Shown: positions 7,631-32,930 of the stretch, piece by piece
How the letters are laid out: every line of letters begins with the position of its first letter
How positions within the stretch are numbered: the stretch's first letter is position 1
Origin: Humulus lupulus
Lineage: Eukaryota > Streptophyta > Magnoliopsida > Rosales > Cannabaceae
DNA length: 64,000 nucleotides
Direction of reading: 5' to 3'
Assembly (NCBI RefSeq): GCF_963169125.1
Contig: NC_084795.1
Coordinates: 96,033,411 to 96,097,410, forward strand
Notes under the pieces: generated by a model
Database searches by the model: none
Told to the model about the DNA's origin: nothing
What the model saw: only the letters and a program-made list of their open reading frames with translations
Program-made: the position numbers and the translations under genes

Positions 7631-8226
7631 TGTTGACCCTCGATTTGGTCAACTGACACGGAGTCAAATGCTTGATATGAATGAAGGTGTTGAAATGGGT
7701 ATAATGGAAAAAGCAATAAAGAACACGACAAATTATAGTGGTTCGCCCCCACGAAATGGTAATGACCTACATCCACTTAAGCTATTATTGATATTAGTTC
7801 TCAAAGGAGTGATCAACGAACTAGGGTTCTCTGAGTTTCACAGACCTGAGAGAGATGAATAATACAATCGTCAGATAATAGCTCTAATTCTCTTGTAAGG
7901 CGTAAACTTAAATCAGCCAAAAGTCCCTTCCTTGAGCTATTTCTCTCTATCTATAGGCTCAAGGAGGGTTACACGAATTAGTTACAGATATTATTTCCTA
8001 AATAATCGAATCATCATGGATCATGGGAGATAATCTCGGATATGATTACAATTGTACAAAATTATCTCTAAATATATAGAGTATACGACCAGGCTGGTCG
8101 TATAGAAACTTCAAATGTTACGTCAGGGGAATCTCACTGGTCGATGGTCGAAAAGAACTTCTGAAAGGTGTCAGCCACGTGTTAAAAAGGTCTGCCACGT
8201 CACCCATGCCTGCTTTTTGGATAACA
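7631..8226 (-). repeat. 3' LTR of element B
   Basis: This 596-bp LTR is nearly identical to 27568-28162. The TATA box of the 5' LTR (ctataaatag on the - strand) has become ctatagatag here. A, the host element, continues leftwards at the TSD. Confidence 0.95.
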
Positions 8227-8241
8227 TTTGCCCCCCAAGTT
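8227..8241 (-). promoter_or_regulatory. Polypurine tract of element B
   Basis: On the - strand aacttggggggcaaa directly abuts the 3' LTR (TGTTATCC). The core ttggggggcaaa is also found in front of C's 3' LTR. Confidence 0.85.
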
Positions 8242-8427
8242 TATTTATTACGACCAGTAATAAATGAACTTTACGACTCTTCGATTACCCCACCAAATCT
8301 GTCAGAGTAGTTCGTGCCTTCTTGGAAAAAGTGGCCTACCCCTATCTAATCATGGCTTTTCGGTTCCCAAGCAATCCATTGACGGCCATAACTCTTCCCC
8401 ATTACCTCTTTCTTCATGCCACAGACA

Positions 8428-8609
8428 AAATATATATAGCCTTCCCAGGGCTTCCTTTTTCTTTTTATGCAAGCTATTTCTCTATCAAGAAACCCTAAGT
8501 CAGAACCTCTATTTTCTCTGAAGATCATCTTTCGGTGTTCCAAGAACCACCAGCCGTTCGTTCGCCTACGCTCGGAATTTCCTCGAACCTCCATAATCTT
8601 TACTTCGGT
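8428..8609 (+). promoter_or_regulatory. Candidate promoter and first exon of element B aORF
   Basis: A TATA box (aaaatatatatag, 8428-8439) lies about 200 bp inside the PPT. It is followed by a pyrimidine-rich leader and a consensus splice donor TTCG|GTAAGTTT (GT at 8608). The matching acceptor is ctatccgcag, ending at 9064. This is the same layout as in A and C. Confidence 0.6.
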
Positions 8610-9064
8610 AAGTTTCAGAACTTTTCTACTCTTTATTTTTGTTGTGCATGCTGTTATGAGTTAGCTTTTAGGTTCTGATATTGCCTGTGTTCTTGGGTTG
8701 AGATGCATCAAAATAGGGGATTTATCGAGTGATGCTAGATAGGATGGTGTACCTTTGCCATTTAGGAGTCTTGTATCAGTCTGATAGTCGAGATCATAAA
8801 TTTAGGACGTAAAATCGAAGTAAAAATTCGATTTTTATGCTAGTTGAAAAACTAAGTTTTTCCTGCCCTAACTGGAGTTGAAAAAGCTTTTTCAAAAAAC
8901 TTTTTCCTTTCACTTTTTGATCAGTTTTTCAAACTGTTTCTGTGGAAAAAAAAATTTTCATTAGAATGTTGTTGTATAAAAGTTTCACTTTTATACACGA
9001 GCAACGTTATTCTAACCAACTTTCTAGGCTCTTCATCCTCACCTCCCCATTTTTCTATCCGCAG

Positions 9065-11637
9065 ATTTTAATGCCAGATTTGTGGGGAGGTGAAAGACCG
9101 ATCGAGGACGATCTTCTCGCACAACTGCTTGAAGGCGAAGAACAGCCTGCTTAGCATGTTCACGAGATTCCTTTTTCCAGACTCTCTTCTTCCAGACCTC
9201 AACCATCTCCAGCCAGAATGGCTCGTTCCAAATCCACTGGCCAAAAGAAACAAAAGCCTAACCACACTTCAAATTCTCCAACTCATCTTGATTCGCAGGC
9301 TGGGGTTCCCTCGACCAGTGGTCGAGAAAACATTGTCCCAGACCCTCCCATCCAGGTTAGGGCTCGCACTCGGCATTCAGTTCTTCTTGATGTCGAGTGG
9401 TATCTTTCTCCCCTTAGCCAAGTAACCCCCAGGATGCTTACCAATTATCTCAGGAAGTATCCCCTCACTACGGTAAATCTCAAGATCCCCACTGCGGATG
9501 AGAGGGCTAACTTGCCCGGAAGCGTTTACAGAGCCTGGTCGAGGTATCGCATAGAGGCGGGGGCTACCCTTCCTCTTCATCCATTATATCAGGGGGTGGC
9601 GAACTACTTTGGTGTCGCCTCCTTCCAAATTACTCCCAACGGATATAGAATGCTTGCGGCACTCTATATCCTTTACAAACTTAAAAAATGGCTGGAGCCT
9701 ACTCCTCATGAGGTCAATTACCTTTTTGTCACCAGGAGACGAACCAAACATTCCTAAGTGACACCACCCACATTTCCAACGTGGGGAAATACAGTCAGGA
9801 GTATTTCCTCATGCCTGACATGGCTGCAAATAGCCTGGCCTTCGCTCGAGGAGGCAAATGCCCTTTTCCACTGGTCGATGTTTATACTTAGCAATTTCCT
9901 TATACTTTTCTGAAACATATTGTGACTTTCAGGCCCATGGTTACGACTAGACCCGACACCTGACATGGTGTTGAGGTCCAACACGCTGGCCAAAATGACG
10001 GATGCTGAGAACTTGAGAACGAAGAGTACTTGAGGCTGTTTGGCCTCCTGACCCCTCATCAGGATATGAGGGAACCCGCGGCGGTTAGTGCCACTGCCGA
10101 GGGGAATCCCGAGCAGCAACCTCCAGCGTCTCCTCCTCGACGGAGACTGACTAGGGTTACAATCAGGGAACCCACTAGCAGTCCCTCAGCAGAAAGGCCT
10201 TCTGCCCCTCAAGGGAAGGGAAAACAAAAGGCAGTCGAGACTGTCGTAGACTTAGACGAGTCTTTAGACGAAAACGGTATTGTTATTTCACTCTTAGATA
10301 ACTTGCCAATTCCCTGTCATTTATTTGATGGGGATGGTAATTTTACATATACTCCAAATCTAGGGCTAGACTTCTTCGTGCCAGAGAGTGAGTGTATGAC
10401 TAGTAGAGTCAATAGTGTAGCGACAAGTAGTAATAGCTCGGGTATTGGTCTTTGTAATTTTCTTTATCTCTTTTCTGATGTGCCATAACTTGTCATCTAT
10501 TTTTAGCTTATTGTCTCCATATTTATCTCTTTCTGCAAAAATGGCCTCCGCAAACGTTTTCGACTTATTTAACACTCAGGAGGAGGAAGAGGTTCCTTTT
10601 GTCCGAAGGAGGAAATCGGCCAGGAAACACGACGGTGAGTCCAGCAAAGTTCCTCCAGCCAAGAAGAATTGAGCAGGCGATCCTCCAAAGGATGGGCCCT
10701 CTGGCCAACCGCCTGCCCAACCTTCTACTCCTGCTGAGAAGGAAATCCCTCCTCCTGCTGCCACAAATCCTTCACCCGCGGCTCCAAACGAACAGGCCCA
10801 GCATGCCGATCTTCCTGGGGCCAAACTATCGAGCCGCTCCCTACGATCAGCTAAGGATCGCCTCGCCCATATCCTTAAGCATGACCGCTGCAGAGAGGCC
10901 ATGGCTGAAGCTAAAAACATGGGGGTCGACCAGATCCTCAACAGGGCCCTGAATGAAGTGGCCAGTGTAAACACTCTTTCTCTTTTTGTGATCATGGTCT
11001 TGACTTTTCCTTCTTTGAAGTTTTCCTAACTCTTATTCTTTGATTGCAGGCCATGCTGACCATACCTGTTGCTCATGCCCGCGCGGGTACAAGCATCAAG
11101 CAGTCCCGATCGAAGCTTACTGAGGAGCTTCAAGTCGCGGATGCTAGGGAGCTGGAGGTGGTCACCCAGCAGAAGGATTCCTTGGCCGCGGAGCTGGCTG
11201 AAAAGCAAGCCTCTCTGGAAAATGCCAGGAAGCAGAGAGATGATTACCAGGATGCTAGTCGAACCCACTGGCGTGAAGTCAAAAGACTTCAGGAGGATAA
11301 TCTTGATAAGGACAGGAACATTGATGTCCTTAAGAGCCAGGTGGAGCAGCTCAAGCTTACAAATGCCAAGGACCTGGAAAGGTATAAGAACGTGACACTT
11401 CGGTGTTTCTACAACTTCTGGAAACACAACCAAAGTGCCATTTTCAACTACCTTCCAGAGGATGCCAGGAAGGCTGAGCTGGCTCATTGTATAGCTCGGT
11501 TGGCTGCTGAAGAAAGAGCCAGGATTCCTGCCTCCCGAGACATTCCGCTGGCCGCCGGAGTGGAGGGAGGGGAAGCTGCAGGAGATGTAGTCGATCAGAA
11601 TGCTCCCCAGGATCCTCCTGCTCCTCAAGCTTCATAA
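9065..11637 (+). pseudogene. Antisense ORF (aORF) of Tat element B
   Basis: This is the best preserved aORF in the window. After the 5' intron (8608-9064) come ATGs at 9071 and 9218. The frame from 9218 holds the conserved domain (GATLPLHPLYQG, NYLFVTRRR) to 9757. A frameshift then moves it to a frame reading DTTHISNVGKYSQEYFLMP. Likely introns include 10967-11049 (AGT|GTAAAC ... ttgattgcag) and one whose acceptor is near 9931 (tgactttcag). The last exon (11050-11637) encodes an uninterrupted coiled coil (KLTEELQ..., QKDSLAAELAEKQ, ENARKQRDDYQDASR) with a Pro/Ala/Gly tail. I read the domain as PF04195-like. The role is unknown: it could bind nucleic acid or partner proteins through the coiled coil, but the sequence does not decide. 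Transcription is opposite to gag-pol. Confidence 0.7.
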
Positions 11638-12310
11638 TTCTTTTTCTTTTATTTTTCTTTAACCATACGACCTACGGGTCGTAATGTAAAGACTGATTTT
11701 TCTTTGGTTTTGCTGCATGTGCAGCTTATTTTACTTTTACTTTTGAACAATTACATCCAAGCAGTACTGCTTGCGTTGTAAAAGAATTCTCTTTGATATT
11801 ATAATATTTCTGCTTTATTATAAGATATGTTCGCATGACCGAACTGAGCATAGTACTTTGGCTTGATTTAACAAAATATAAAATTTGAAAAATACTCTAA
11901 CATGCTTTCACTTATTTTGTTCATGTGTTTACATACCTCTTGGTATGCTTTGCTATCGATGTACCTTATATGCCCCCCAAGTGACTAAGGAGCATTAGGT
12001 CCTTGGTCACTTGCCTTGACCACGACCTGTACGAACATTACTGCTCAGTATGAAATGCAAAATGTATAATACAACAAATCAACACACGTAATGAACAAAT
12101 ACTTGTAAAAAATTACAAAATTTCGCAAGAATGACTGGCTGCGCACAGTCCCTTATAATACTCGTATTTAAATGGACTAAACATGTCTTTACGAGTGATC
12201 TTTAAAAGATCTTCCACTTATAAGCGATTAGCCATAGAACATGACTAACCCTTTTTCAAAACTTGTAAAAAGTAAAAATTAATACAAGCCAGTCCTTTAA
12301 TAAGGACTGT
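11638..12310 (-). other. Spacer between aORF and integrase of element B
   Basis: No gene is visible. The sequence is moderately AT-rich and lies between the convergent 3' ends of the aORF (+) and integrase (-). It presumably holds termination signals of both, but I cannot point to one. Confidence 0.5.
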
Positions 12311-12708
12311 TTATTGATAATACTTGCACAAGTGCTCTCCATTCCAATAACGCGGAACGAGATCTCCATTTAAGCGTGCAAGTTTGTATGTGTCTGGATG
12401 AAGGACTTCTTCAATCTGGTAAGGTCCTTCCCAGTTTGGTCCGAGTACTCCAGCAGCCGAGTTGCGGGTGCTTAAGAAACTCTTCGAAGTACTAAGTCTC
12501 CGATGCTGAACTTTCTTTCTTTTACTTTAGAGTTAAAATACCGAGTGACTTTTTGCTGGTACGCAGCTACTTGGAGTTGGGTTTCTCTCGTTTCTCCTCA
12601 ACCAAGTCTAGGGACTCCATCAATAGTTGACTATTTTGGTCCTGGTCGTATGCGATTCTTCGATGTGAGGGCGGATCTAACTCGACTGGCAACATAGCTT
12701 CATACCCG

Positions 12709-13060
12709 CACTACAAGAAAAAATGCTTTTAATAACACCAAAAATGTGTTATCAAAACCTACGATAACACTTTTTGATGTGTTAAGACAGACTATGTTAT
12801 CGTAGGTCAGGGTACTTTACATAACACTTTATCAGTGTTATACAGATGTGTTATTGTACTGTCAACGATAACACAATTTCTGTGTTATTTTAATATATAG
12901 ATAAGTGTTGAATTATATTATTTATAGTCGATACTATAACACTTTTTTTGTGTTATACTACACTTTAGTATAACACTTTTTTTGTGTTATCCTACACTTT
13001 AGTATAACACATTTTTTGTGTTATACTACACTTTATTATAACACATGTGTTATATTAGCT
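12709..13060. repeat. Left terminal and subterminal repeats of CACTA element J
   Basis: After the cactaca terminus, the short palindromic word ATAACAC/GTGTTAT recurs more than ten times. It includes a tandem run of about 48-49 bp units (tataacac-tttttttgtgttat-cctacacttta, 12937-13060). Such subterminal arrays are the usual transposase-binding (TNP1-like) sites of CACTA elements. The right end carries only a few copies (for example ataacgc, gtgttat near 21665-21700), so the two ends are asymmetric. Confidence 0.85.
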
Positions 13061-14255
13061 TAGAGAAACATAATCTTTTTTTACTTACAAAACTAGGAAA
13101 ACAAATATGAAAATTGAAGCCAAATAAGGTAACATAAATAGATTTTTATTAATTACTCAAATGTAATTACAATATTTAGTCTACTAGTCTAGTCTTAAGA
13201 AATCATATTACAACATAATATATGCCCAATTCAGATTCCTTTATCACTAAATACAAAACAAGAAATGTATACAAAAATTAGTGAAATACATTCTTCCATT
13301 CTAAAGGCCTCAACTACAAATGTTGTCAAGAATTGCTCCAAAGAAATCATCTCAATATACCTGCACATTGTAAAAAAAAAGTCTTTTTATTATTAAGAAC
13401 ATAAGACTTAAGCTAGTTTCCACTTGTAAGCATATAAAGTTTAAATAAGCAACTCAACTCAACTCAAGCAAACATCTCTTTTATCATACATAGAATAAGC
13501 ATAACAGATCAGTGAAAATAAGAGTTTATATATACATAGAATAAGCATAACAGGCATTTGTGTTGATAGTAACACCCTAATAAAAAAGAAAAAGAAAATT
13601 CTTATGTGTCACTATGTTGTAAGTTGGTTATGTACTATATATGGTTCGAAAATAAATTAGCTTTTGAGGAGAGAGATTTTTTAATGAGAATTAAGAGAGC
13701 TCAAAAAATTGGAGACTTTGGGAGCTGAAGTCAGAAAAAGCAAAGCAAGAAGCTTTTAAAAGTAAAAGATGTTATTATAGTAATTGGTAAAACACTAGGA
13801 CCAAGTTAACTGCCAGCATTGAATTATTTGATCCGACATTATGGTCCTAAGGCCAAGAGTTCTTTTATCCTTTGACCATATATACATAAATATTAGTAGG
13901 ACCAAATATTTGAGAGATTAAGGTCCAGAAAAAAAAGCAGGGTTTTTTATTTTACTACTTATCATCATCAATACCAGAAGAAAAGAAAAAGAAAACGAAA
14001 AAAAAAGAAAAGAAAGAAAACTCAATGACTTGTTATCAAGGATTAAAATACGTAACTGTCAATATGAAATAATCTACTTGTAATTTACTCATTGAATCAA
14101 TATAGATAGGGAAAAAAGATGTACTTTTTCATATTTGTGCTGCTGTCCAACCTTTAAGTGGCTAAAATTGAGTTGGATATACTATATTCAACTTTATAAT
14201 AGACAAATCGTGAAGACTGAAAAGATTATTGTTACCAAAAGAAGACTTAAATTAC
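13061..14255 (-). other. Non-coding left part of J, with possible terminal exon
   Basis: No captured gene is recognised. On the - strand, tttttacaatgtgcag ending about 13359 resembles a 3' splice site. The AT-rich sequence downstream contains aataaaaat (near 13145) and would suit a last exon and 3' UTR of a transcript running right to left through J. This is weak evidence. Confidence 0.3.
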
Positions 14256-14462
14256 CTCTAACTCAAACTCTGATCTGTTAAGCTTTAAGAGGTAGAGCAG
14301 AGCAAAGAAATCATCCGTATCAACATCTGTATCCAAGAGAATCCGGCGAGGCCTAGGCCGAGGAGCGCGTTTTGCAGTGTGCAAATTAGCTGCAAATCCT
14401 AAAAGGAGTAGAACAAAAATAACCCAGAAGTTTTTTTTCAACACCATTTTCATTGTGATCAT
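14256..14462 (-). pseudogene. Captured first exon of an NSH3-like inosine/uridine nucleoside hydrolase
   Basis: The exon starts with ATG at 14462. It encodes a basic N-terminus, a hydrophobic signal-peptide-like segment ([16 protein letters not shown]), and then the hallmark [17 protein letters not shown] of nucleoside hydrolases. The DxDxxxDD cluster in it binds the catalytic calcium. It ends at a clean splice donor (TTAGAG|GTAATT). Full-length relatives are hundreds of residues longer, and no further exon is found, so this is a fragment of 69 codons. The signal peptide fits the apoplastic, NSH3-type branch of purine/pyrimidine nucleoside salvage. It lies inside CACTA J, so it is a transduplicated piece. 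The frame is open. Confidence 0.85.
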
Positions 14463-14997
14463 TTACACCCCAGAAAAGTATGCAATCCTCACCAAACTTG
14501 ATGAAAGCTATCAAATTTTGCTTATGAAAAGGTTTGTGTTTAAGCCATGGACCAAATAAACAAACAAAGTTTCAAACCAATAAACTTTACAATACAATAC
14601 TTTGAATCAGATTCAATAGATATAGGAAATTCTAGAATTTGCTCATAGAATCAAGCATACAAAACAGAGAACTTGTGCTAGTAACAGGAAAATAAAACGC
14701 AGCCAATTTATACAGAAAGAAAGCACTTTAAAAAAAAATCGACATGTCCTCCATAAGAAATCAAAAAACATTTTACAAGTCCTCTAAAGCAAACCACAGA
14801 GACATACCTATATAAGTATGAATTCAGTAGCTTATAATAGATAGAAAATCTACAATTATATCCAAATATATATGTATAAATGCAGTAGCTTATAACATAA
14901 GGTCTAAAATTATGTATATATATATATCTATGTATGGATACGGCTAAACAATAATCTAGCAGCCATGGAGATGAACCATAACAGTACAACCTGGCAT

Positions 14998-15211
14998 CAT
15001 AAAGATTACTAAAGGCTCACTGCTAGTTATGAAATGGAATAAAGTAAATGGATTGTATGTGTTAGATGGGTAAATTGTATCTATTGCTGAAGCTGATGCT
15101 ATTAAAGTTCAAGAAAATGAGATGCAACTATGGCACCAAAGGATGGGTCATATAAGTGAACAAGGCTTGAGGGAACTACACAACCAGAAAATTATAGACA
15201 AGATAAAATAA
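14998..15211 (+). pseudogene. Ty1/copia gag-pre-integrase fragment inside J
   Basis: The + strand encodes KGSLLVMKWNKVNGLYVL and, after one stop, LWHQRMGHISEQGLRELH. This is the GAG-pre-integrase HHCC region that precedes integrase in Ty1/copia elements (H..H seen as WHQRMGH). No LTR or other pol domain is near. It is a short scrap on the strand opposite to the captured host genes. Confidence 0.8.
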
Positions 15212-16010
15212 AATAACAAAATAAAGACAAACAAAGCAATAACAAATTAAGAAAAAGCTTTTTCTAACAGACTTTTGGATTATCAACACTAATACAATCT
15301 AATCTAAAGGAAAATTTTGTTAATTTAAGAGATGAACTCTATCTCTAAACAGAGAGATACACCACAAAATGTAAGAAACCTATCATAACTTAAAAAAACA
15401 TTCAAAAAGATCACTCATGCAACTAAGAAGTTTATGCTCAGTCTAATATAAATTAAAATACTAAATAAGAGGAACACCTCATGTAGTTAATGACCATTAA
15501 ACAAATAAGCTCCAAAGCTTTTCACTTGCCTGAGAAACAAAAACAGGGTAGTACTCATATATTTCAGTTGAGGAAACAAAACTAAGTAGACTAGCAAAAA
15601 CAGAGGACAAATATCATCATCAGGCCAAAAAAAAAAGTTCATAATCTAAGAAGCAAAGATGGGCCAAAATAGATATCGACAAAATCAAATCCAATGTAAA
15701 CAAGAATGCACTGCAAACAGGTTCAAGTTACTTGATACAAAAGCATCAAAGGCATTGTCAAGTAGTGTTCAAAAACATGCATTATAAAACAGATTAATAA
15801 TAAAGGTAATCTTTAAATAATTCTTCCTCTAATATATTAACAGGTGATAAAGCAAATAAAGCATTATAAAACAGAGAATAACAAACTTAGATATTCAAAA
15901 GCCCTCAGATCTCATAAGCTAATATGGTCATTAACAGTGTACATGAGAATTTTCATTATAAGCCTTAAGAGCACTCACAATAGATTCTGTAAAATAGACT
16001 TTTTCTGGTG

Positions 16011-16041
<31 letters not shown>

Positions 16042-16067
16042 CAATATATATGTATGTATGTATGTAT

Positions 16068-16100
<33 letters not shown>

Positions 16101-17557
16101 CAAGGCTTATAATGCAAAACCATGAAACTGCTTCTGAAAATTAGATTTTCCATCACAGGGCAAATAAGCATGCAAAGAAAGTGAAAACTAACAAAAAAAA
16201 ATGACAATATCTTCATATTATTACACAAGGCAATAAAATATATATTTTGTAGCTGTAAAAAAAGACCATTTTAATATATAAATGCCTTCAGAGATTAATG
16301 CTAGAAATTTCATGAACATTGAAAATTCATTAAGAACCAATCACATCTTCAAGGTTTAAACACCACCACTTCAACCATCACCTTTGGCATTCACCACCAC
16401 CAATAGCAAACACAGATCATCATCACCACAGCCAACATGAGAAAATAGTAATAAATAAATAAATAAAATAAAATAATGGATCATGGTGAGTACCAAAGAT
16501 GGTGAGAGCAGAAAAGATGGAGGCTCAAAATGAAATCAATGCACATATCAATACAAAAATAAAAGTTTTCATCATCAGGCACAAAGTAATCTAGAAACAA
16601 ACTAAAGAACCGTGGAAAAAAGAGGAAAGTAATCATCAGGCCAAGGCATTGTTTCCAACATTGAGTTTTTCCATCACAGGGCTTGTTGAGGTACTGTTGA
16701 ATAAAAAAAAATTAGTATACATTGTTCCTCTGATCTAAATAAATCATAAAGAAAAGAAATTCTTAAGACTTTAATCATCAAAAGTTTAATGTGTTTAAGT
16801 AAGATCAAGAGTAATGTTAGTAAAAGAACACATTGTTAGAATTCTAGTTTGTTTTAACTACCTGGGGTACTTTTGCTATTCTGTTGTCAGATCAAGAATA
16901 ATGTTAGTTAGTAAAATACCATATTGTTAGAAGTCTAGTCGGTTTTAACTACCTTTTTTAGGAGTCGATATGAGTTGTTGAAATCAATTCTCATTAAAGT
17001 TTATTGAAACTTAAGCCTGTACATTTTCTCCACAATTCCTATTTGAACTCCTGGAAAGAATCTAAACTTCACTCTCACTACTTTCTGTTTCACCAAAACA
17101 AGACCATTTTCAACATTCTAAAGAATTCCAAAAAAATAAATAAATAAATAAATCAACTTTTCTCATTGGAATTTGTGTGCGAGTAATGTTGAAACACTTA
17201 CATAAACTTCTTGCAGCCTTTAAATAATTTCTCGCAACGATCTTTCAACTCTCAGCTGACTGCTCTATAGAACACACCTGTCAAAGAAGGCAATTGAATA
17301 GTATAGAAACTCTACATTGCATTAATATTAACTTTACAAGAAGTTTGGCTTGCTTAGATACAGAGTTCCCTATGACTACGAGACACTACAATTCCTAGAA
17401 TATAGTAAGAAAAATGGTAAAAGTAAACAAAGAATTATATCCAAATGAAAAACAAAGCAGACGTTTAAGCACCACAAGTGTTGCACTCTAATCAAGCTTC
17501 ATAGCTTCAAGCAACCTCTCAAAAAACATATCAAGCACAATAGCATCTTAAACAAAC
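15212..17557. other. Non-coding central part of J
   Basis: AT-rich DNA without a recognised gene. It holds the left copy of an internal duplication (15998-16256) with GA and TATG microsatellites (16016-16102). On the - strand near 17510-17440 a short reading AIVLDMFFERLLEAMKLD followed by a stop is compatible with a further exon, but I do not recognise it. Confidence 0.4.
15998..16256. repeat. Internal direct duplication in J, left copy
   Basis: The sequence from actttttctggtgaaaaag to tattttgtagctgt recurs almost unchanged at 18755-18950. The left copy is about 60 bp longer because its (GA)n/(TATG)n microsatellite is expanded. The two copies bracket the CHD1-like and UPRT-like exons. Confidence 0.9.
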
Positions 17558-17770
17558 CTGGGAAAAAATTAAAACACGATGTTTTGTCTCATGCAACCTA
17601 ACAAGCAGCTTATCGAGTATAACTAACTTCCCAATGCTCAAAATAATTCTCTCAAGTTTACTGCTATCATTGGTTCTTGAGTCTCCACCATAACCATGGT
17701 CTGCACTCTCAAACAGGAAGGGGTGATTGCAGCACTTCTTCAACTCAACCACAATATTTAAAAGTGAAAC
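17558..17770 (-). pseudogene. Captured exon of a CHD1/CHR5-type SNF2 chromatin remodeler
   Basis: The 213-bp exon is flanked by canonical splice sites (tattttcag| at 17771 and CAG|GTTTGT at 17558) and encodes 71 open codons. The motifs VVELKKCCNHPFLFE and GKLVILDKLLVRL ... HRVLIFSQ are those between the two helicase lobes of SNF2 ATPases. The spacing and the ADHGYGGDS insert match the CHD1 subfamily (Arabidopsis CHR5). In vivo the parent would slide or space nucleosomes. This fragment has neither the ATP-binding lobe nor the C-terminal motifs, so it cannot be an active remodeler. It is in the same orientation as the other captured pieces in J. Confidence 0.85.
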
Positions 17771-18629
17771 CTGAAAATAATTATTACACAAATGTTTCAG
17801 CAATTGCTTAATACGAAAACTAGAACCACACTATGATGTTGATATGGAATTGTGAAGTTTTATCCATGGTAAACTTATGAGTAATAACATATCAAATTTC
17901 CAGTAGACACTAACAGAACATGGACACTAGAATCACAATACTGGCGTTGCTAAAGAATATTAATTTATTAAAACAAAAAACTCTAGAAAGAAAAATCTCT
18001 TCCACCAATATTAATTTGGCATTTCCATGGAAGCATTATGTTATACATAAGAAGTTACAAAGACACCCATAAAATATGTACATTAAATTCCCTGTCAAAG
18101 CAAATTCAATAATAAAACCAAAATCAATTGAAAACCAACAGGATAGAATAAATCAAGAAGAGGAGTTCCAGAAGTAAAGAAAGGCAAATGATAGGTCCCA
18201 GTACATTAATAGAATATAGATAGTAGAGAGGTTGTTGTGCTACAAAGCAAAGCAAACAAAATGCACTTAGAATTGACAGTAAAAAGATGGAGAGACAAAA
18301 TAAAACTATATTCATTAATGGTTCAAACTTAACATAAAGAAACATATTCCAACTCAAATGTCCAAAAAAATCATCATTTTCATGTGACTGAAATTAATTG
18401 TATAGTTTCATGATTCCATCCTTGAAACAAAGAGTGCAATAAATATAAAATATGTAGACTTCAGTAATTGATGATTTCAGATTTTTATAATCTTTAAGAA
18501 CAGTAGACTTTTTTCTTTCTTCTTCTTTTCTTATTTGGTCTTATTGAATAAATGTAAAGTATAGACTTGGAAATGTTTATCACATTAAATAGAAATAAAA
18601 AAGAGGATTAGAATAGAGGGAATCGAAAC
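17771..18629. other. Non-coding stretch in J between CHD1-like and UPRT-like exons
   Basis: AT-rich, intron-like sequence. No exon of either neighbouring gene is recognised here, so this is probably captured intron plus filler. Confidence 0.4.
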
Positions 18630-18683
18630 CTGCTGGGCATTGTCTCCTTCTCTGTGGATTAGAATTTTCCCAATCTTGATTCC
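18630..18683 (-). pseudogene. Captured exon of a uracil phosphoribosyltransferase (uridine-kinase-like) gene
   Basis: The 54-bp exon encodes GIKIGKILIHREGDNAQQ. It closely resembles the conserved (K)GIKIGKILI-REGD segment of plant UPRT/uridine kinase-like proteins, which salvage uracil to UMP. It has a plausible acceptor (ttttaag|) and a canonical donor (CAG|GTTTCG), and the frame is open. Only this exon is visible. The identification rests on 18 residues, but they are characteristic. Confidence 0.7.
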
Positions 18684-18754
18684 CTTAAAAAGAACCAACA
18701 TCAAAAACTCCCATGAAAACAAAATAAAGCTGAGAGCACATCAAATTACCCTAT

Positions 18755-18950
18755 ACTTTTTCTGGTGAAAAAGTAGAGAGAGAGAGAGAGAGAGAAGGCT
18801 TATAATGCAAAACCATGAAACTGCTTCTGAAAATTAGATTTTCCATCACAGGGCAAATAAGCATGCAAAGAAAGTGAAAACTAACAAAAAAAAAATGACA
18901 ATATCTTCATATTATTACATAAGGCAATAAAATATATATTTTGTAGCTGT
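18755..18950. repeat. Internal direct duplication in J, right copy
   Basis: A 196-bp near copy of 15998-16256 with a shorter GA run and without the TATG tract. It sits just upstream (in transcript sense) of the UPRT-like exon. Confidence 0.9.
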
Positions 18951-19061
18951 CATCTAATCTCTAATAAAAAAAAAACTTAAACCAAAAACATAGTAAGGAA
19001 TCCTATGACAATACTATATTCTGAATTAAAGAACTACAGCGTAGGATAAAGATATACTTGC

Positions 19062-20671
19062 CTTCCACAATGTCAGCTAGACTTAAGCACCCAGTTGTAT
19101 GCATTGCCTGAAGACTTTGATTTAGTGCCTCAGTAGAGGCAGGTTTTTTCTCTTTCAATTTTTCCTTTATAAAAAAAAAATAAGAGAGAGAGAGAGAGAG
19201 ATAAATCAAAGGAGTTAGATAAATGCAATAAACCAATATCCCTTCTTCAATCTTTATTAAATTATTTCTAAGAAAAATCTGAGATAAACCAGATCAAAAT
19301 ATATATTAAAAGTAAAATTGAATAAAAAAATCACTTTATATACAAATCAAAGCTACGATCAACATCATTTGAACTTCTAAAAAAGAATCTACTCGTATGA
19401 CTAAGTGCACTTTTATTAATAAGAAAAATGAATGTACAAGTCAAAATCCAAAAAAAAAATACCACCATGCTCAGTTGTAAGTAACTGGCAAAAAGTAAAT
19501 GAACACTTGAACAGCTTGGTTACATTCAAACAGTCTGTTTGCATTTTAAGTTGATATAATATTATTTTTTTAGCTAGCAAAAAATGAACATACCAGCAAA
19601 ACTGGCAATAGGAAGCGTGAACTTGCAGAGAAATTAGTTCTTAAACCCCGAGCAAGATTGCCAATAGCTTGAATTGCCTCGACTGCTACAGCGATATTAA
19701 CATCTGTTATGAGCTGTACAGAAAAAGAATTAAATGATTTTTATTCATCAACTCAAAAAGCAAGTATAAACTTATAACAGAAGTAAGAATATAAAGCATG
19801 AAGTTAAAACTTAATGGAGCAGATTGAACACTTAACTATGCAATATTAAAAAGATCCTTGGCAATAGATAGAGGTATAAACGATGCAAATGAAATACCCA
19901 AACATAAAAAGACAATGTACCTTTTTTAGTGTCCGACAGATTTCTGAGAAATCACCGGGTGCTATTCTTTTTGTTGAAGTAAGCTTGGTTAGCTCTGCAA
20001 CAGCCTCTTTCCGTTCTGACCACTTGGTTGCTTTCTGTGACATAAGGCACAAGATGTTAATAGCAGTACAGGAACATCAAAACCAAATATTCCTAAATTA
20101 AATCACTACAACCAAAAAAAAACTGAACTAGTTTGACGGAGAGAAGAAAGAAGACTGACCACTCCATCCCAAAATCCAGACTTCTCCAAAGGAGCCAATA
20201 TATCAACAGGATCAACGAGCTCATACTCATCTATTTCCTGAGGAGCTGACAATTAAAATATGTTAAACTATGCATAAACAGGAGAGCTAAATAACCAACA
20301 TCTCTGCAGTAAAAAAACTAATAAAATATAACACTAAAGTGTCAAACTCCTACAATGGTAATCACTTGTTACCCGCTGATAGAACACCTACTTGTCGTCA
20401 TTTAATATCAACCAAGAAAAAGAATAATCTAATAGACTGTGTATTACACACCATCAGATGTAGATTCCTCAAATGGGCCAACACCCACAACTTCAGATAC
20501 AACCTCCTTTTCTGGCTCCTTGTCTTGCTCAGACCTGAAGACATCAATACCAACTAGGTTAAGAAAAATAAAAACAGCAAGCAGATCAAACATCTAGTGA
20601 AAAAATGAATTTTCACCTTATTTTGCGACATGGCCTAGCTGCCCTTGTTACATTCACCAGCTTGGCTTCCA
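19062..20671 (-). pseudogene. Captured six-exon fragment of a MOR1/XMAP215-family TOG protein gene
   Basis: On the - strand the exons are about 20671-20617, 20534-20452, 20245-20160, 20034-19921, 19713-19594 and 19164-19062. All introns from the second exon on have matching phases (83, 86, 114, 120 and 103 nt), and there is no in-frame stop. They encode a basic linker (RPCRKIRSEQDKEPE), PQEIDEYELVDPVDIL, then TOG helices (FWDGVKATKWSERKEAVAEL, NIAVAVEAIQAIGNLARGL, SSRFLLPVLLEKLKEKK, LADIVE). I place it at the linker plus TOG2 region of MOR1, a cytoplasmic microtubule polymerase. The last donor is AAG|GCAAGT, a consensus GC-AG site. The parent is about 2,000 residues, whereas about 187 are here. 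Confidence 0.9.
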
Positions 20672-21316
20672 ATTATTTTTTCTTCAAAAAATAAAAAATA
20701 ATAAATAAGTCATTACTTCAAAGGATCAGGGAGCAATTAAAGTATCACCTCAGTCACTGAATTTTCATTTCTTACCAAAAACAAACAACAAAGAAATGAA
20801 ACCCAAGTTTTCATTTTCTCATACTTTGAACAGCCAAAGAGAGCAAGAAAAGGAATATTATAATATCAAGAACAATAAGAGATCAAAGCAAATAAAAAAA
20901 AATCCAATAATTCACTTTTCTGTCCAAAAACAAACAAACACAATACATATCTGTAGATATAAGATTTAAAATCAATATCTTGATGCTTTCTAACCACAAC
21001 AATTGTTCAGTTCGGTTGGCTGAAATTTTAAAGGGGATACTGATAATAGCAATGTTGTAGCACCAAAAAAAATTAAGCAAACACAACATAAAACAAATCA
21101 TGGTAATGAAGCAAGATTAAGGAAGAAAATTAAGCCCCGTGATATATATACTTCATTACCTCAACAGTGAAAAAAAAAAAAGAAGAAGAAGAAAATCAAA
21201 CAAACAAAGTACAATAACTGAAATAAAACAATGAAGAACAAAAAATTAATAAACCCACGAAGTATATAACCCAAAAAATCACCCACCAACAGAACGAGAG
21301 AGAGAGAGATCTTTAC

Positions 21317-21560
21317 CTGCACCAACGAGTCTCCGAGTCCACGTCGTCGAGCCTCCTGCAGTCCCGCTGAGCCTCTGTCAGCCCCGTCGACCTCCACCGT
21401 GGTTGAAGCCTCGTCTATCCCCTTGTCGTCATAGTTGAGGGAGCAGGAAAGAAAGAGAGAGAAGGAGAGGGATCGGGGAAGAGTGAGTGAGGAGACCGGC
21501 TTAGAGATAGGGTTTTTAGATTAGAGGAAAAAAATGAGAGCTTTGGGTTTAGTTCTAGAG
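21317..21560 (-). promoter_or_regulatory. Putative 5' UTR/first exon of a J-encoded transcript
   Basis: Just inside J's right end the - strand has a pyrimidine-rich, leader-like stretch (ctctccttctctctctttcc). It is followed by a GC-richer segment ending in a strong splice donor, GTGCAG|GTAAAGATC (GT at 21316-21315). The first ATG opens only a five-codon ORF (MTTRG). The GC content is above that of the surrounding DNA. It lies upstream of, and is collinear with, all four captured host fragments, so it could drive a chimeric transcript. No clear TATA box was found. It could instead be a further captured 5' exon. Confidence 0.45.
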
Positions 21561-22599
21561 AATAGAACGGGAAGAGAGGGAAAAGGAAAGTATAACAATT
21601 TCCTAACCTGCCTTTTTTTTTTACTATTCATCATTTACCGCTTTTATTTTTACATTAGATAGGATAACGCTTTTTTAATAAAATTATATTTATGTGTTAT
21701 GGAATGGGGTATTTGGTGTAGTGCCGTATGCTAAGGAAAACAGGGTATGACCTGTTGCTGTTCGATGAGAAGTTCTATACGACCAGAGTACTTCAGGCAG
21801 CTATTCTGGCCATGCTCCTTTAGCTTCCTCGAGCCTTTTCTTCAAGGTATCCTTTAGTGTCTTATTTACCGCTTAGACTTGCCCATTTACTTGTGGATGC
21901 GCAACTAAAGAAAAGCTCTTGATGATTCCATGCCTCTTGCAGAAGTCTGTGAATAGGTCGTTGTCGAACTGGGTGCCGTTGTCTGAGACAATTTTCCGAG
22001 GCAATCCATATCAGCAAACAATGTTCTTGATGACAAAGTCAAGAACTTTCTTTGTCGTTATGGTAGCGAGTGGCTTAGCTTCGGCCCATTTGGTGAAGTA
22101 GTCGACTGCTACAACTGTGTATTTTACTCCACTTTTTCCTGTTGGCAAGGACCCGATTAAATCCATACCCCATATTGTGAAGGGCCACGGACTTTGCGTC
22201 TGCTTCAATTCATAAGGAGTTGCGCATGGGATCTTGGAAAACCTCTGACACTTATCACACTTTCACACAATCTCCATCGAGTCTTCGTTCATAGTTGGCC
22301 AGAAATAACCCTGCCTCGGTATCTTCTTCGATAAGCTCCGCCCCCCAGAATGATCTCCACAGAAGCCTACATGTACCTTCTTCATTAGCTCTTTAGCCTT
22401 TTCTAGTGTAATACATCTGAGCAGTGGCATGGAGTATCCTCTTTGGTATAGAACACCATCGACTAGTATGTACTTAGCAGCCTGTCTCTGAAGAGTCCTG
22501 GCTTTGTTTCTATCTGCTGGTAGTACACCACTCGTGAGACACTCCTAATATGATGCCATCCATGTATCTGCTAACCAGACCTCCATATTGGCTTCATCT

Positions 22600-23150
22600 G
22601 CTCGTATGCTCGGCTCGCGTAGCCGCTCCACTGCCACTATATTTAAAGTGTCAGCATCTTTCACACTCGCGAGTTTGGATAAGGCATCTGCGTTTGAATT
22701 CGGATCTCGGGGTATTTACTGGAGGGTATATTTCTCAAATTGTGCCAACAAATCTTTGGTTTTGTTCAGATAGGCCACCATTTCCAGACCTTGTGCTTAA
22801 TACTCCCCCAAGACTTGATTCACTACCAGCTATGAATCACTGTAAATATCCAGAACCTTTATGCTCATGTCTTTGGCCAACCTTAACCCAGCGAGTAGGG
22901 CTTCATACTCGGCTTCGTTGTTTGAAGCGGTGAAATCAAACCTAATTGCGTAGTGAAATTGATGCCCTTCTGGCTTTATCAATATCACTCCAGCTCCTGC
23001 GTGAGATTCGTTGGACGATCCATCTGTGAATAACTTCCACGAAGGAGTTTCAACTCGAGGCTTAGGCGCACTAGGCTTTTCGCTCTGCTCGCTATCTGGG
23101 AGTTCAGTAAATTCGGCGATGAAATCAGCCAACACTTGTCCTTTTACTGC
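22600..23150 (-). pseudogene. Second (Tat-type) RNase H of element B
   Basis: On the - strand: QVLADFIAEF, then WKLFTDGSS, NNEAEYEALLAGLRLAKD and a YSDS motif. The domain continues past a stop into VAYLNKTKDLLAQF and NADALSKLASVKDADTLN. The active-site acids (D of TDGSS, E of EAEYEAL, D of SDS) are present. This archaeal-like RNase H, downstream of the ordinary one, identifies the Tat lineage. Confidence 0.85.
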
Positions 23151-23167
23151 TACTCGCGGTGAATACG

Positions 23168-24463
23168 TTATATCGAACTGCCCGAGTTCGACTGCCCATT
23201 CAACAAATGTCCAGCAGCCTCTGGTTTTTGTAGAACTTGCCGAAGGGGCTGATCAGTTAAGACTGTGATGGGATGGGCTTGGAAGTAAGGACGTAACTTC
23301 ATTGATGCCAAAATTAAGCAATAGGCTAACCTTTCGATGGGAGGATACCTCAATTCGGCACCGATTAACCTCTTGCTTACATAATACACTGCCTTTTGTA
23401 CGCCTTCTTCTTCTCTTACTAGCACTGCACTAGCAGCATATTCAGTGATCGCCAGGTAAATGAACAAAGTTTGTGCCATGTGGGCTTTTAAGGCTTGGAA
23501 AGCCTGTTCGCAGTCTCCAGTCCACTCGAACTTCTTGTTGTCTCTAAGTAGATTAAAGAATGGGACGCATTTATCCGTCGATTTTGAAATAAATCTACTG
23601 AGTGCGGCAATCCTTTCAGTCAAACTTTGCACATCTTTGATTTTTACTGGCGATTTCATATCGATCAGCGCTTTGATATTTTCGGGGTTGGCTTCGATTC
23701 CCCTCGAATTGACAATGAACCCCAAAAATTTCCCTGATCCTACTTCGAAGGAACACTTGAGAGGATTTAGCTTCATTTGATACTTATTCAAAACATTGAA
23801 ACACTCCTGTAAATCCTTCACATGTCCTTCTGCCTTTTTCAACTTTACCAGCATGTCGTCCACGTACACCTCCATGTTTACTCCGATCAACTCCTTAAAC
23901 ATGTGGTTAACTAGTTGCTGGTAAGTCGCACCAACGTTTTTCAGTCTGAAGGGCATTACTTTATAATAGTATAACCCTGTATCGGTCTGAAAGCTAGTGT
24001 GAACCTCGTCAGGGGGATGCATACTGATCTGATTGTATCCTGAGTATGCATCCATGAAAGAGAGGATCTCATGTCCCGTAGTTTCATCGACCAGCTGGTC
24101 GATCCTTGGGAGTGGGAAACAATCCTTTGGGCAGGCTTTATTAAGGTTTGTGAAATCCACACAGGTACGCCATTTGCCGTTAGGCTTGGGAACCAGTACT
24201 GGATTAGAGACCCACGATGGATAAAACACCACCTTGATGAACCCATTCTCCTTCAGTTTTTCAACTTCTTCTTTTAAGGCTTTCAATCTATCTTTATCGA
24301 GCAGCCTTATTTTCTGCTGCACGGGTGGAAAGCTTCTGTCGACGTTTAGGACATGGCTTATGACTGCAGGATCTATCCCAGCCATGTCTTTATGTGACCA
24401 GGCGAAAACTTCCTGGTTCTTCCTTAAAAATTCCACCAGTGCATGCTTTGTTGTTGCTTCCAA
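23168..24463 (-). pseudogene. Reverse transcriptase and RNase H of element B
   Basis: This is the longest open stretch in the window (431 codons). RT motifs are in order: FIKVVFYPSWVSNPVLV, DFTNLNKACPKDCFPLPRID, MDAYSGYNQI, and the catalytic YVDD at about residues 200-203 (23866-23855). The RNase H part follows (AVYYVSKRLIGAELRYPPIERL). The RT would copy the element RNA into cDNA in cytoplasmic virus-like particles. The ORF is cut off at both ends by frameshifts. Upstream, RT continues in another frame to the protease. Downstream, the frame shifts near 23215 before the second RNase H. Confidence 0.9.
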
Positions 24464-24603
24464 ATTTTTGCCAACCTTTACTACTCTGGCCAGAAAATCT
24501 TCGTCAAGCTGGACCTCCTCTAGGTCCTCGACAGGTCCAATATCTTCCTCAAAATTCCCAAAGCGAGGATCTAAGTCTCTATCCTCTCACTTTGGGCAAC
24601 ACC

Positions 24604-25227
24604 CTATTTGGTGACTTCATCACCTGATTGGGCTTCTATATCAATGGCCATCTGCAACCTTTCTGGGGGTGCGCTCCTCGACGTTCCCTTCTTGGCCTTA
24701 GTAATTGAGGCATTATAGCACTCCCTTGCTTCCCTCTGATTTCCCAACACGCGTCCTACCCCTGCATCTATTGGGAATTTCATGGCCAGGTGCCATATTG
24801 AGGTGACGGCCCAAAGGTCAACCAGTATGGGTCTTCCGATTACAGCGTTGTAAGCCAAAGGACAATCGACTACTATGAAAGTAGTGAGTAATGTCTTGGT
24901 AGCGGGCGCTGTACCTACTATTACTGGAAGTCTGATTGACCCTGTTGGATTGAGTCCCTCACCAAAGAAGCAGTAAATTGTCTGTTTGCAAGGCTCCAAG
25001 TCCTTGACGGAAAACTTCATCCGTTCCATCGAACATTTATACAGGATGTTAACTGAACTTCCAGTATCGACCAACACTCTCTTTACCATCATGTTAGCAA
25101 TTTTAACATCCACGACCAGCAGATCGGAATGCGGGAACCAAACATGCTGGGCATCACTATCAAAGAAGGTTATTTCACCGTCCTCTGACTGAGCCTTCTT
25201 TGATGCCCGGTCCTCCAAAGTCATCAT
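24604..25227 (-). pseudogene. Aspartic protease region of element B
   Basis: The active-site motif LVDTGSSVNILY, and downstream ILVDLWAVTS and REARECYNASI, identify a retropepsin-like protease of the gypsy type, which cleaves the Gag-Pol precursor. The preceding ITFFDSDAQHVWFPHSD is typical of Tat elements and recurs in C (ITLFEDDARRVHFPH). A stop (after DEVTK) and a frame change separate it from RT. Confidence 0.85.
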
Positions 25228-25278
25228 CTCAATGTCCTAGTCGTGGCGTAGGGTCCGAGCATATCATTCCCTTGCCTT

Positions 25279-27520
25279 TCAGCTGTTTCTCGCAAGGTGA
25301 AGGCCTCCACAGATTGTGAGTAAAGTGCCAGCTACAGGATCAGGCTGCAAAGGTGGCGAGCGTTGGTGTGCAGGCGCCTGTTCGTTGCCACCTGGAGCCT
25401 CTCGTTGGGAATTTCCCGAGGCTCGTACGTGTCTCCTTAAGCATCCTTGTCTGATAAGGAACTCACTTTCATCTTTCAGCTGGTTGCACTCGTTCGTATT
25501 GTGTCCGTAGTCGTTATGAAAACGACAGAACTTGGTGGTATCTCTTTTCGAAATATCCTTTCGAATGACAGCGAGTCTTTTGTAAGGCACACTGGAACTC
25601 GTGGCCTGATACACCTCTGCTCGAGACTCAACAAGGGCAGTGTAGTTAGTGAATCGTGGCTCATAACGGTTGCCCTTAGCGCGCTTATTCTATGAGGTGG
25701 AAGGTTCGTTATGGGGTCTCTACCCCCCATTTTTGTCATTGCCATTGCCGCTCCCGTTGCCTTTACCGTTGCCGTTGGGTTTTGACCCATTGGCGGATTT
25801 GGCGGGGTCTTCACTCCCCTTATCTTTGCCTGGGGTCTTTCCCTCGCTGGCAATGGCATCTTCGAGCTTGATGTATCGATCAGCTCGATCCAAGAATTCT
25901 TGGGTAGTCTTAACCCCATGTTTCCAGAGGTTACTCCACAGAGGTGTACGACGCCTAACTCCTGCAGTTAGTGCCATCATTTTGTCTTCATCTCCCACTG
26001 TCTTGGCTCCAGCGGCTGCTCGCATAAAGCACTGGACGTAGTCTTTCAGTGGTTCTCCTTCTTGCTGGCATATCTTAACCAGCTGGTTTGCCTCAGTTGG
26101 GTGAACACGACCCGCATAGAATTGTCCATAAAACTCCTTTACGAACATCTCCCAAGATACAATACTTGCAGGAGGGAATTTAAAAAACCACTCCTGTGCA
26201 GTATCAGAAAGTGTTGCAGGAAAGATCCTGCACCAAGCATCTTCGGACACTTTCTGAATGTCCATCGGTATCTCAAACTTGTTCACATGAGATACCAGGT
26301 CACCATACCCGTCAAAGTTTGGAAGTGTGGGCATTTTAAACTTACTGGGAGTCTCTGTCACATCTATCCTCTGAACGAAAGGAGTGCCCCTTCTCCTGTC
26401 GTACTCGATGTGAGACATTCTTCCCCCGACCAGCTGTTGTACTGCTTAGTTCAGGGCATCTATCTGGGCTTGCACGGCTTCAGGAATCGTTGGGGCCTCT
26501 GCTACCCGGGGAATGCAGTCATCGTGTCGTTCCCGGCGGTCATTGAGTATATCCCTTAAATCTTCGTCTCTTCGCCATGCTTGCTCCGAGCCGGTTAAAG
26601 ACATTGGTTTGTCCGGGCTGCCCCCCAACGTTACGTCTCGCTTGTTGGTCTTCTCTAGGTGGTAGTCTTCTGCCTCCACCTCTCTCTTCATTTCTCCGAC
26701 CGGCATTCCCTCTGCCTGAGTCGGCCTCATTGTATCCATGGCCATCTCTAAACCTTGATTGGCTATGGTGGGACCGATTGTCCCCTCGGTTGCCTCCTCG
26801 GGTTGGAACTTCTCAAGCGCTAGGGGGAGGCTTGCGCTGGTCGGTGGGTCCCCATGCATTATCATGTCGTGGGAGTCCCCTGACTGCAGAGCTGATCTCT
26901 GAGTTCCTTCTGTTTCCAGAAGGACATTGTCCCCTCCTTGGTGGGTTTGGCTCTTCACCCCCATGGCGTCTAGGACTACGAGACTACTGCCCGGCCCTAT
27001 TCTGCCTTGGCTACGGGTGATTGCCTCGACCAGCCTGGGACGGAGGTTGCATTTCAGGATCTCTTGGTGGGACATCATCCTAAGGCATTGGTGGCTGCTC
27101 GGGCCTTTCAGGGCTCGTTGGCTGGATCGGAGGGCTAGGATTGGGACCCCGTTGAGGTGGCCCATTCAAGGGTTGATCAAGCTCTGAGGTAGGTGCAGCC
27201 TGATTCCTAGCCAATTGCAGGGCTGCCATGGCCTCCCTCTAATGACGGTCCATCTCCACCTGTCTTTCACTTAGCTCTTGGCGCTGACGCTCTATCTCTT
27301 GTTGTTGTCGCGCCATAATCTTCGCAACACTTTCTTGACTCGCCCTCAGATTGGCCAATTCATCTTGCAATACCCCCAGGGTATTTCTCAACGTCTCAGA
27401 GTCCAGTTCCTCCTTGTCAAATTCCAAGTGTGGCTCATTTTCAGCCATGTTTGGAGGAGGATGAGGTTGAGATGGTGCAGCGCCAGCCGCCTGCCCAATC
27501 TTCTTTGTTGTTTTTGCCAT
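25279..27520 (-). pseudogene. gag of element B, in several frames
   Basis: It begins at ATG 27520 with a Gln/Glu-rich coiled coil (QESVAKIMARQQQEIERQRQ) that meets a stop at 27239. It then continues in other frames through a low-complexity region. The retrotransposon gag core lies at 26418-25720 (WCRIFPATLSDTAQEWF, FVKEFYGQFYAGR), followed by a Gly/Asn/Lys-rich spacer. The conserved CRFHNDYGHNTNECNQLKDE zinc-knuckle-like motif is near 25500. Gag would form the particle that packages the RNA. There are several stops and at least two frameshifts. Confidence 0.85.
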
Positions 27521-27548
27521 TAATGCTTCAACAATCTCGTCTCAAGCT

Positions 27549-27567
27549 CTCAATGAAAGCACCAGAA
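27549..27567 (-). promoter_or_regulatory. Primer-binding site of element B
   Basis: Directly inside the 5' LTR the - strand reads ttc-tggtgctttcattgag. A TGG three bases after the LTR end is as expected for pairing with a tRNA 3' CCA. I could not assign the tRNA. Confidence 0.7.
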
Positions 27568-28162
27568 TGTTGGCCCTCGATTTGGTCAACTGACACGGAG
27601 TCCAATGCTTGATATGAATGAAGGTGTTGAAATGGGTCTAATGGAAAAAACAATAAAGAACATGACAAATTATAGTGGTTCGCACCCACGAAATGGTAAT
27701 GACCTACGTCCACTTAAGCTATTATTGATATTAGTTCTCAAAGGAGTGATCAAAGAACTAGGGTTCTCTGAGTTTCACAGACCTGAGAGAGATGAATAAT
27801 ACAATCGTCAGATAATAGCTCTAATTCTCTTGTAAGGCATAAACTTAAATCAGCCAAAAGTCCTTTCCTTGAGCTATTTCTCTCTATTTATAGGCTCAAG
27901 GAGGGTTACACGAATTAGTTTCAGATATTCTTTCCTAAATAATCGGATCATCATGGATCATGTGAGATAATCTCGGATATGATTACAATTGTACAAAATT
28001 ATCTCTAAATATATGGAGTATACGACCAGGCTGGTTGTATAGAAACTTCAAATGTTACGTCATGGTAATCTCACTGGTCGATGGTCGAATAGAACTTCTG
28101 CTAGGTGTCAGCCACGTGTTAAAAAGGTCTTCCACGTCACCCATGCCTGCTTTTGGATAACA
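27568..28162 (-). repeat. 5' LTR of element B
   Basis: This 595-bp LTR carries an intact TATA box, ctataaatag, on the - strand (27893-27884). It is flanked by TSD aattg at 28163-28167. Its pair is at 7631-8226. Confidence 0.95.
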
Positions 28163-32400: not shown

Positions 32401-32930
32401 CTCCATGGTGTGTTCTTCACTTCAAAATTCATACTCCCCTTTTCTGTCTCCTTCCTTCTTTTCAAAATTAGGTTTAAAACCTATTTTTTTTCTTTAAGTA
32501 GGGAGGCGGGCTGCACCGCTACAAAACCCATGCCGTGACGCATGTTAAATTTCTGGGTACTTGAAGATTCCATTGTCATGACCCCATAAAACCATACCGT
32601 GGCGCATGTTCACACTATGAAAACACCCTTTCTGTAAAGGGTCTAGCCGTGACCCTAAGTAACTTCTCCAATTTTAACCCTTTTTATTCCAAAAATTCTC
32701 CAGAGCTTTAAAATTTCATGAGAAATCATCTTTTTATGAAATCAACACGAAAAAGCTGGTTTTTTTTTATCTATTTTTAACAATTTTCCTCCAATTGCTC
32801 ATTTCCTTTATTTAAAAACTAAAACCTCCAAATAGACAAACACAAGTGTGATACCACACTAAACAATTGAAAAGCTTAATAAAAACTACCTAAAACACGA
32901 CCAAAACACAGCACAAAATTAGACTCAACA
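29414..32930 (-). repeat. 3' LTR of element D, split by solo LTR E
   Basis: Without E (29498-31710 including one TSD) it is about 1.3 kb. It runs tgttcactaaaattgatacg to agactcaaca in the + reading and pairs with 37023-38410. Confidence 0.92.
29498..31705 (+). repeat. Solo LTR E of a Tekay/Del-like family
   Basis: A 2,208-bp LTR (tgtaacgaccc ... gggtgttaca) is flanked by TSD ttgat (29493-29497 and 31706-31710), with no internal region. It is homologous along its length to G (42227-44513) and to both LTRs of F. The end pair TGTAACG/CGTTACA forms the short inverted repeat. A remnant ORF here is not a gene. Confidence 0.92.

What the first reader, a model, noticed from the sequence alone, without database searches (positions are those of the whole stretch)
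12709..21723. Pack-type CACTA element carrying fragments of at least four unrelated host genes, all in one orientation
J is precisely delimited (CACTACA ends, 3-bp TSD ccg). It contains exons of a MOR1-like TOG protein, a UPRT-like enzyme, a CHD1-like remodeler and an NSH3-like nucleoside hydrolase, all on the - strand, with introns and clean splice sites. I see no transposase. Four genes from different families in one orientation suggest repeated DNA-level capture into a sense-transcribed unit. All frames are open although J is younger than B. Possible outcomes are a chimeric protein or small RNAs acting on the parent genes.
Basis: partly seen in the sequence, partly recalled or inferred. Interest (0 to 1): 0.88.

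Follow-up and report, generated by a model that had tools for sequence, protein, structure and literature searches.

The report
Hop transposon carrying host gene scraps
A 9-kb jumping DNA element in the hop plant carries pieces of several ordinary plant genes, one of which a public database lists as a hop protein; gene-carrying elements of this kind are already known from other plants.

Summary
The observation largely holds. J (12709-21723, 9,015 bp) has CACTACA ends and a CCG duplication. Its joined flanks read in frame across the insertion point and align to a related copy in the window that lacks J. The host is hop: NCBI's "protein MOR1-like" P0001 equals a reading of J at 207 of 207 residues. 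On the minus strand J carries one partial and five whole MOR1 exons, a CHD1/ISWI-type helicase exon and the first exon of nucleoside hydrolase 3. UPRT rests on 18 residues that no tool confirmed. Introns came along, so capture was at DNA level. No transposase domain was found. "All frames open" does not extend to a chimera: the full exon chain shifts frame after MOR1 and stops 8 residues into the helicase exon. Six private replacements in the MOR1 piece all fit C>T or G>A, as in unselected methylated DNA. Best reading: a non-autonomous Pack-CACTA element, much like soybean Tgm-Express1, with decaying cargo. New member of a known kind. RNA and small-RNA effects are untested.

The parts
12709..21723 (.). 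Element J, non-autonomous Pack-CACTA transposon, 9,015 bp
   Evidence: CACTACA termini (13 of 20 terminal bases agree between the ends), CCG duplication, empty site
12709..13060 (.). Left terminal region with dense TAACAC/GTGTTA subterminal repeats
   Evidence: 17 hexamers in the first 350 bp, 3 in 8,200 bp of interior; 34-bp spaced units
21604..21723 (.). Right terminal region, few subterminal repeats
   Evidence: 1 hexamer in the last 120 bp and 1 in the last 350 bp
12706..12708 (+). Target-site duplication CCG, left copy
21724..21726 (+). Target-site duplication CCG, right copy
21317..21580 (-). GC-richer leader-like stretch ending at a possible donor AG|GTAAAG; its ATG opens only 5 codons; origin unknown
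   Evidence: sequence by eye; no Pfam match in overlapping stretches
20617..20670 (-). MOR1 partial exon M1p, 5' breakpoint inside the exon, TAA just upstream in frame
20452..20534 (-). MOR1 exon M2
20160..20245 (-). MOR1 exon M3
19921..20034 (-). MOR1 exon M4 (TOG region)
19594..19713 (-). MOR1 exon M5 (TOG region)
19062..19164 (-). MOR1 exon M6, followed by GC donor AG|GCAAGT
   Evidence: Morus MOR1 model P0087 has GKYIF at the same point
18630..18683 (-). 54-bp exon-like piece, 18 aa, UPRT-like by recall only
   Evidence: AG/GT borders; nothing relevant
17558..17770 (-). CHD1/ISWI-type SNF2 helicase exon, 71 aa
   Evidence: Chd1 3mwy E 2.5e-14, ISWI 6pwf E 3.7e-14
14256..14462 (-). Nucleoside hydrolase 3 first exon with ATG, 69 aa
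   Evidence: Cannabis NSH3 P0201, 85% identity over 90% of the query, E 3.8e-29
14975..15208 (+). Copia gag-pre-integrase fragment, interrupted by a stop
   Evidence: PF13976 E 3.5e-9, above cut-off, for 15074-15208; no match for 14975-15070; stop between the halves
15995..16256 (.). Internal direct duplication, copy 1
   Evidence: 98% over 176 columns to copy 2
18752..18950 (.). Internal direct duplication, copy 2
7631..28162 (-). Host element B, Ty3-type retrotransposon interrupted by J (limits approximate)
   Evidence: LTR-like pair 7631-8226 / 27568-28162, 23 of 595 aligned bases differ; reverse transcriptase at 23168-24586 minus and integrase piece in the right flank, the latter below Pfam cut-off

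Best explanation
J is a non-autonomous CACTA transposon that gathered genomic pieces of several unrelated plant genes, introns included, between CACTA ends (shown by anatomy). It then moved as one unit, presumably with a transposase supplied from elsewhere (inferred), into the integrase region of an older Ty3-type retrotransposon (shown). Growth was probably stepwise (inferred): the pieces come from different genes, a copia scrap is included and one stretch is duplicated inside J. The published model, in which closely spaced CACTA copies fuse and trap the DNA between them, fits but is not shown here. The cargo is most likely not a working gene (inferred); the NCBI MOR1-like protein is a reading of its MOR1 piece. 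If transcribed, its retained splice sites should give varied, mostly truncated exon chains.
For: Ends, duplication and empty site. Dense subterminal repeats at the left end. Exon homology: MOR1, CHD1/ISWI-type, NSH3. Introns: another hop MOR1-like model, P0021, reads into the intron after M3, and its residues match J's intron apart from the length of a T run. P0001 equals J's reading at 207 of 207 residues. No transposase family in 22 of 22 stretches. Six of six private MOR1 replacements fit C>T or G>A: null 8.9e-6, 1.2e-4 and 8.7e-4 at transition weights 1, 2 and 4. The script gave a one-step path for five; for the sixth its hop rows split V/A and I took alanine as ancestral from P0003, Cannabis and Parasponia. 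The full chain stops in the helicase exon.
Against: Parent genes and other J copies in hop could not be examined at DNA level: the genome search did not answer in seven tries. Right-end subterminal repeats are sparse and the ends agree at only 13 of 20 bases. Comparators for the private changes are other truncated hop models and two relatives, not the functional hop MOR1. The whole MOR1, helicase and NSH3 exons keep open frames and splice sites, which could mean youth or constraint. Eight of 32 exon-skipping combinations keep the helicase frame.
Confidence: 0.85

Rival explanations
1. J encodes a functional truncated or chimeric protein, for example a lone MOR1 TOG fragment, or a 251-aa MOR1-UPRT-helicase fusion made by skipping exon M6.
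For: NCBI lists the reading as protein MOR1-like. M6 has a GC donor, often weaker (recalled); skipping it leaves one 251-aa frame.
Against: The start codon of that frame lies in a retained intron and, with M6 included, the frame stops in the helicase exon. The TOG match is partial and below Pfam cut-offs. Private replacements fit unselected decay.
Confidence: 0.06
2. J is a source of small RNAs that act on MOR1, the CHD1-type gene and NSH3 through shared sequence.
For: A published outcome for captured fragments (PMC13317346 section 8; a passage of PMC8903248). CpG observed/expected is 0.30 in J and 0.55 in the window, which fits long methylation.
Against: No RNA or methylation data seen. Low CpG may come with the introns. 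The review says that plants in which essential donor genes are silenced may be removed by selection.
Confidence: 0.2
3. A Helitron gathered the gene pieces and later inserted inside a plain CACTA element.
For: Helitrons are known to carry gene fragments (PMC13317346 section 4).
Against: A strict scan for CTRR ends with a GC-rich hairpin gave 0 hits on both strands of J. Shuffles gave a mean of 0.04, so the scan is strict and would miss degraded ends.
Confidence: 0.05

Closest known systems
Tgm-Express1, soybean CACTA element in the wp allele (PMC1947982; abstract and passages seen)
   Same: CACTA transposon with exonic and intronic pieces of five unrelated host genes whose splice sites are still used
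   Different: 5.7 kb, in an intron of a pigment gene, with 12 chimeric transcripts isolated. J is 9.0 kb, sits in a retrotransposon, has no transcript evidence here, and also holds a copia scrap and an internal duplication
Pack-CACTA / Pack-TYPE elements of Arabidopsis, rice and maize (PMC8903248; outline, sections 9 and 10 and passages seen)
   Same: Non-autonomous DNA transposons with terminal repeats and target duplication that carry coding DNA, often from several loci; in maize the CACTA class held the most distinct loci
   Different: Other species; the copy number and family of J are unknown
CACTA-like elements of Chenopodium (PMC8978399; passages seen)
   Same: Host gene fragments captured inside CACTA elements
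   Different: The passages place the fragments upstream of a TAD domain (transposase-associated, recalled) of the element; J has no such domain detected

Membership tests
CACTA superfamily | Terminal inverted repeats beginning CACTA | tested here: met
   CACTACA at both ends; 13 of 20 bases agree
CACTA superfamily | 3-bp target-site duplication | tested here: met
   CCG on both sides; empty site supported
CACTA superfamily | Subterminal repeats near both ends | tested here: inconclusive
   Dense on the left, 1 hexamer in the last 350 bp on the right
CACTA superfamily | Mobilised by a CACTA transposase | not testable with these tools
   No autonomous partner could be searched; the genome search did not complete
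Pack-TYPE element | No transposase of its own | tested here: met
   No transposase family in 22 of 22 stretches of 60 aa or more; shorter stretches mostly not scanned
Pack-TYPE element | Host gene fragments between the ends | tested here: met
   MOR1, CHD1/ISWI-type, NSH3
Pack-TYPE element | Intact parent genes in the same genome | tested here: inconclusive
   Full-length MOR1 and NSH3 in Cannabis and others; no hop full-length protein is named in the 120 listed of 1,051 or the 120 listed of 302, where clusters at 90% identity may hide it
Pack-TYPE element | Other copies with the same ends | not tested
   The genome search did not complete
Helitron | CTRR end with hairpin | tested here: not met
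   0 hits in a strict scan of both strands

The most novel reading that the evidence does not exclude
J makes a spliced RNA in which the GC-donor exon M6 is skipped, giving a 251-aa in-frame MOR1-UPRT-helicase fusion, so that a Pack-CACTA element has assembled a three-gene protein by matching exon phases.
Probability: 0.03. Interest if true: 0.75.

Novelty: new member of a known kind. Interest (0 to 1): 0.3.

Why it matters
J is a well-bounded hop example of multi-gene capture with its empty site shown. A database entry named as a hop MOR1-like protein (P0001) matches transposon cargo exactly; five further truncated hop MOR1-like entries deserve the same check. Such entries can mislead counts of gene families.

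Tried and rejected
Helitron origin: a strict end scan gave no hit. A fused internal CACTA end at 20104: it lies in a MOR1 intron, and P0021's residues are consistent with the same bases there, so it is probably native. The internal duplication as an inserted element: by eye I saw no flanking duplication. UPRT by tool: nothing relevant (the only hit, was an unrelated copper transporter chimera at E 2.3). CACTA gene capture in hop in print: searches (5 papers listed of 5; 15 listed of 395; 10 listed of 138) showed no title or shown abstract on it; these are listings of an open-licence library, so absence is not proven. A search for the morning-glory Tpn1 family failed on its term format and was not repeated.

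Full report
The element. J runs from 12709 to 21723 and is 9,015 bp long. It begins CACTACAAG and ends with the reverse complement of CACTACACC, with CCG on both sides. The ends agree at 13 of 20 bases. The left 350 bp hold 17 TAACAC/GTGTTA hexamers, 8,200 bp of interior hold 3, and the last 350 bp hold 1.

The empty site. With the flanks joined and one CCG removed, the minus strand has a 71-codon open stretch that spans the insertion point. The frame has stops upstream and a frame change downstream, so the host copy is itself decayed. A 45-residue piece of the right flank matches the integrase core domain at 4.8e-5, below Pfam's cut-off; reverse transcriptase lies at 23168-24586 minus at 9.7e-29. 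A related copy at about 44,870-45,570 aligns across the point with 458 of 666 aligned bases identical and no 9-kb insert; close to the point the identity is lower, 64 of 121 columns. J is therefore one insertion into element B, whose LTR-like ends differ at 23 of 595 aligned bases. J is younger than B.

The host. A protein search with the MOR1 piece gave 78 proteins of 815 candidates. The best, P0001, is NCBI's "protein MOR1-like [Humulus lupulus]". Reading J from an ATG inside an intron through M2-M6 and past the GC donor gives P0001 at 207 of 207 residues, intron-derived ends included. The window is thus hop, at that locus or one with the same reading. Five other truncated hop MOR1-like entries are among the 78 (P0002, P0003, P0021, P0046, P0078). 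The search used J's own piece and a length window, so their overlap with J is expected and does not show that they are J copies.

The cargo. MOR1: one partial and five whole exons, 20670-19062 minus. PDB chain 2qk2 (TOG protein; fly, recalled) matched at 4.8e-18. TOG-type Pfam families matched only below their cut-offs. Full-length Cannabis MOR1 matched at 9.8e-107. J agrees with Cannabis MOR1 at 171 of 186 residues, with Parasponia at 166, and with hop P0002 and P0003 at 172 and 170. Helicase: a 71-residue exon that matches Chd1 (3mwy, 2.5e-14) and ISWI (6pwf, 3.7e-14) about equally; the CHD1 label is likely but not separated from ISWI by score. Pfam found nothing there, and no full-length CHD1 was among the 120 listed of 1,051. 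NSH3: first exon with its ATG; Cannabis NSH3 at 3.8e-29, 85% identity over 90% of the query. Pfam matched below cut-off and PDB gave nothing. UPRT: 18 residues with AG/GT borders; the name rests on recalled plant sequences and no tool supported it. A copia gag-pre-integrase piece lies on the plus strand with a stop inside.

DNA-level capture. Exons keep their introns. Hop entry P0021 reads on into the intron after M3, and its residues match J's intron apart from the length of a T run. Morus MOR1 entry P0087 carries GKYIF just where J has its GC donor, which suggests that the donor is native; proteins alone cannot separate GC from GT.

Coding capacity. J has 22 stop-to-stop stretches of 60 aa or more, all scanned with Pfam. 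None matched a transposase; one bacterial family matched a stretch at E 0.036, below its cut-off. M6 is 103 bp, so joining it to the next exon shifts frame. The full chain from P0001's start gives 214 residues and stops 8 residues into the helicase exon. From the leader-like stretch, the two chains tried have one ATG frame of 25 aa or more, of 40 aa. Of 32 combinations of internal exons, 8 keep the helicase frame; the longest, with M6 skipped, has 251 aa. A TAA lies in frame just upstream of the partial first exon.

Decay. Six MOR1 residues are private to J among up to seven other sequences. Five have a single C>T or G>A step. The sixth is G>A too if alanine is ancestral, which I take from P0003, Cannabis and Parasponia; the script left it without a path because the hop rows split V/A. 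A null over one-base replacement changes gives 8.9e-6, 1.2e-4 and 8.7e-4 for six of six at transition weights 1, 2 and 4. CpG observed/expected is 0.30 in J, 0.66 in the 11,517 bp of B around it and 0.55 in the window. This fits methylated, unselected DNA, but such bias is general in plants (recalled), and intron content may contribute.

Growth. A stretch at 15995-16256 recurs at 18752-18950, 98% over 176 columns, the second copy lying upstream of the UPRT-like exon in the cargo's direction. This suggests growth inside J. Fusion of neighbouring CACTA copies is a published model (PMC8903248 section 9; PMC13317346 section 4). I saw no internal CACTA ends beyond a probably native match, so the model is compatible but unproven.

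Comparison. Tgm-Express1 of soybean is a 5.7-kb CACTA element composed of five unrelated gene fragments with usable splice sites (PMC1947982, abstract and passages). Pack-CACTA elements of maize often hold DNA from several loci (PMC8903248 section 10). J belongs with these. Four host pieces on one strand have a chance of 1/8, so orientation alone supports no mechanism.

Noticed in passing
42320-56527: Three related direct stretches about 6 kb apart (42.3-44.5, 48.3-50.2, 54.3-56.5 kb; 78-87% identity), possibly a tandem or nested retroelement array.
   Followed up: no
31705-32927 and 37101-38407: LTR-like pair, 86-92% identity.
   Followed up: no
61001-63000: Very AT-rich tract, 19-21% GC, with an inverted repeat 62236-62461 / 62938-63162 at 78%.
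   Followed up: no
21317-21580: GC-richer leader-like stretch at J's right end with an AAACCCTA motif and a possible donor site; perhaps another captured promoter.
   Followed up: partly
44870-45570: A related retrotransposon copy that spans J's insertion point without the insert.
   Followed up: yes
proteins P0002, P0003, P0021, P0046, P0078: Five other truncated hop MOR1-like entries on contigs of several lengths; they may also be transposon cargo or pseudogenes.
   Followed up: partly
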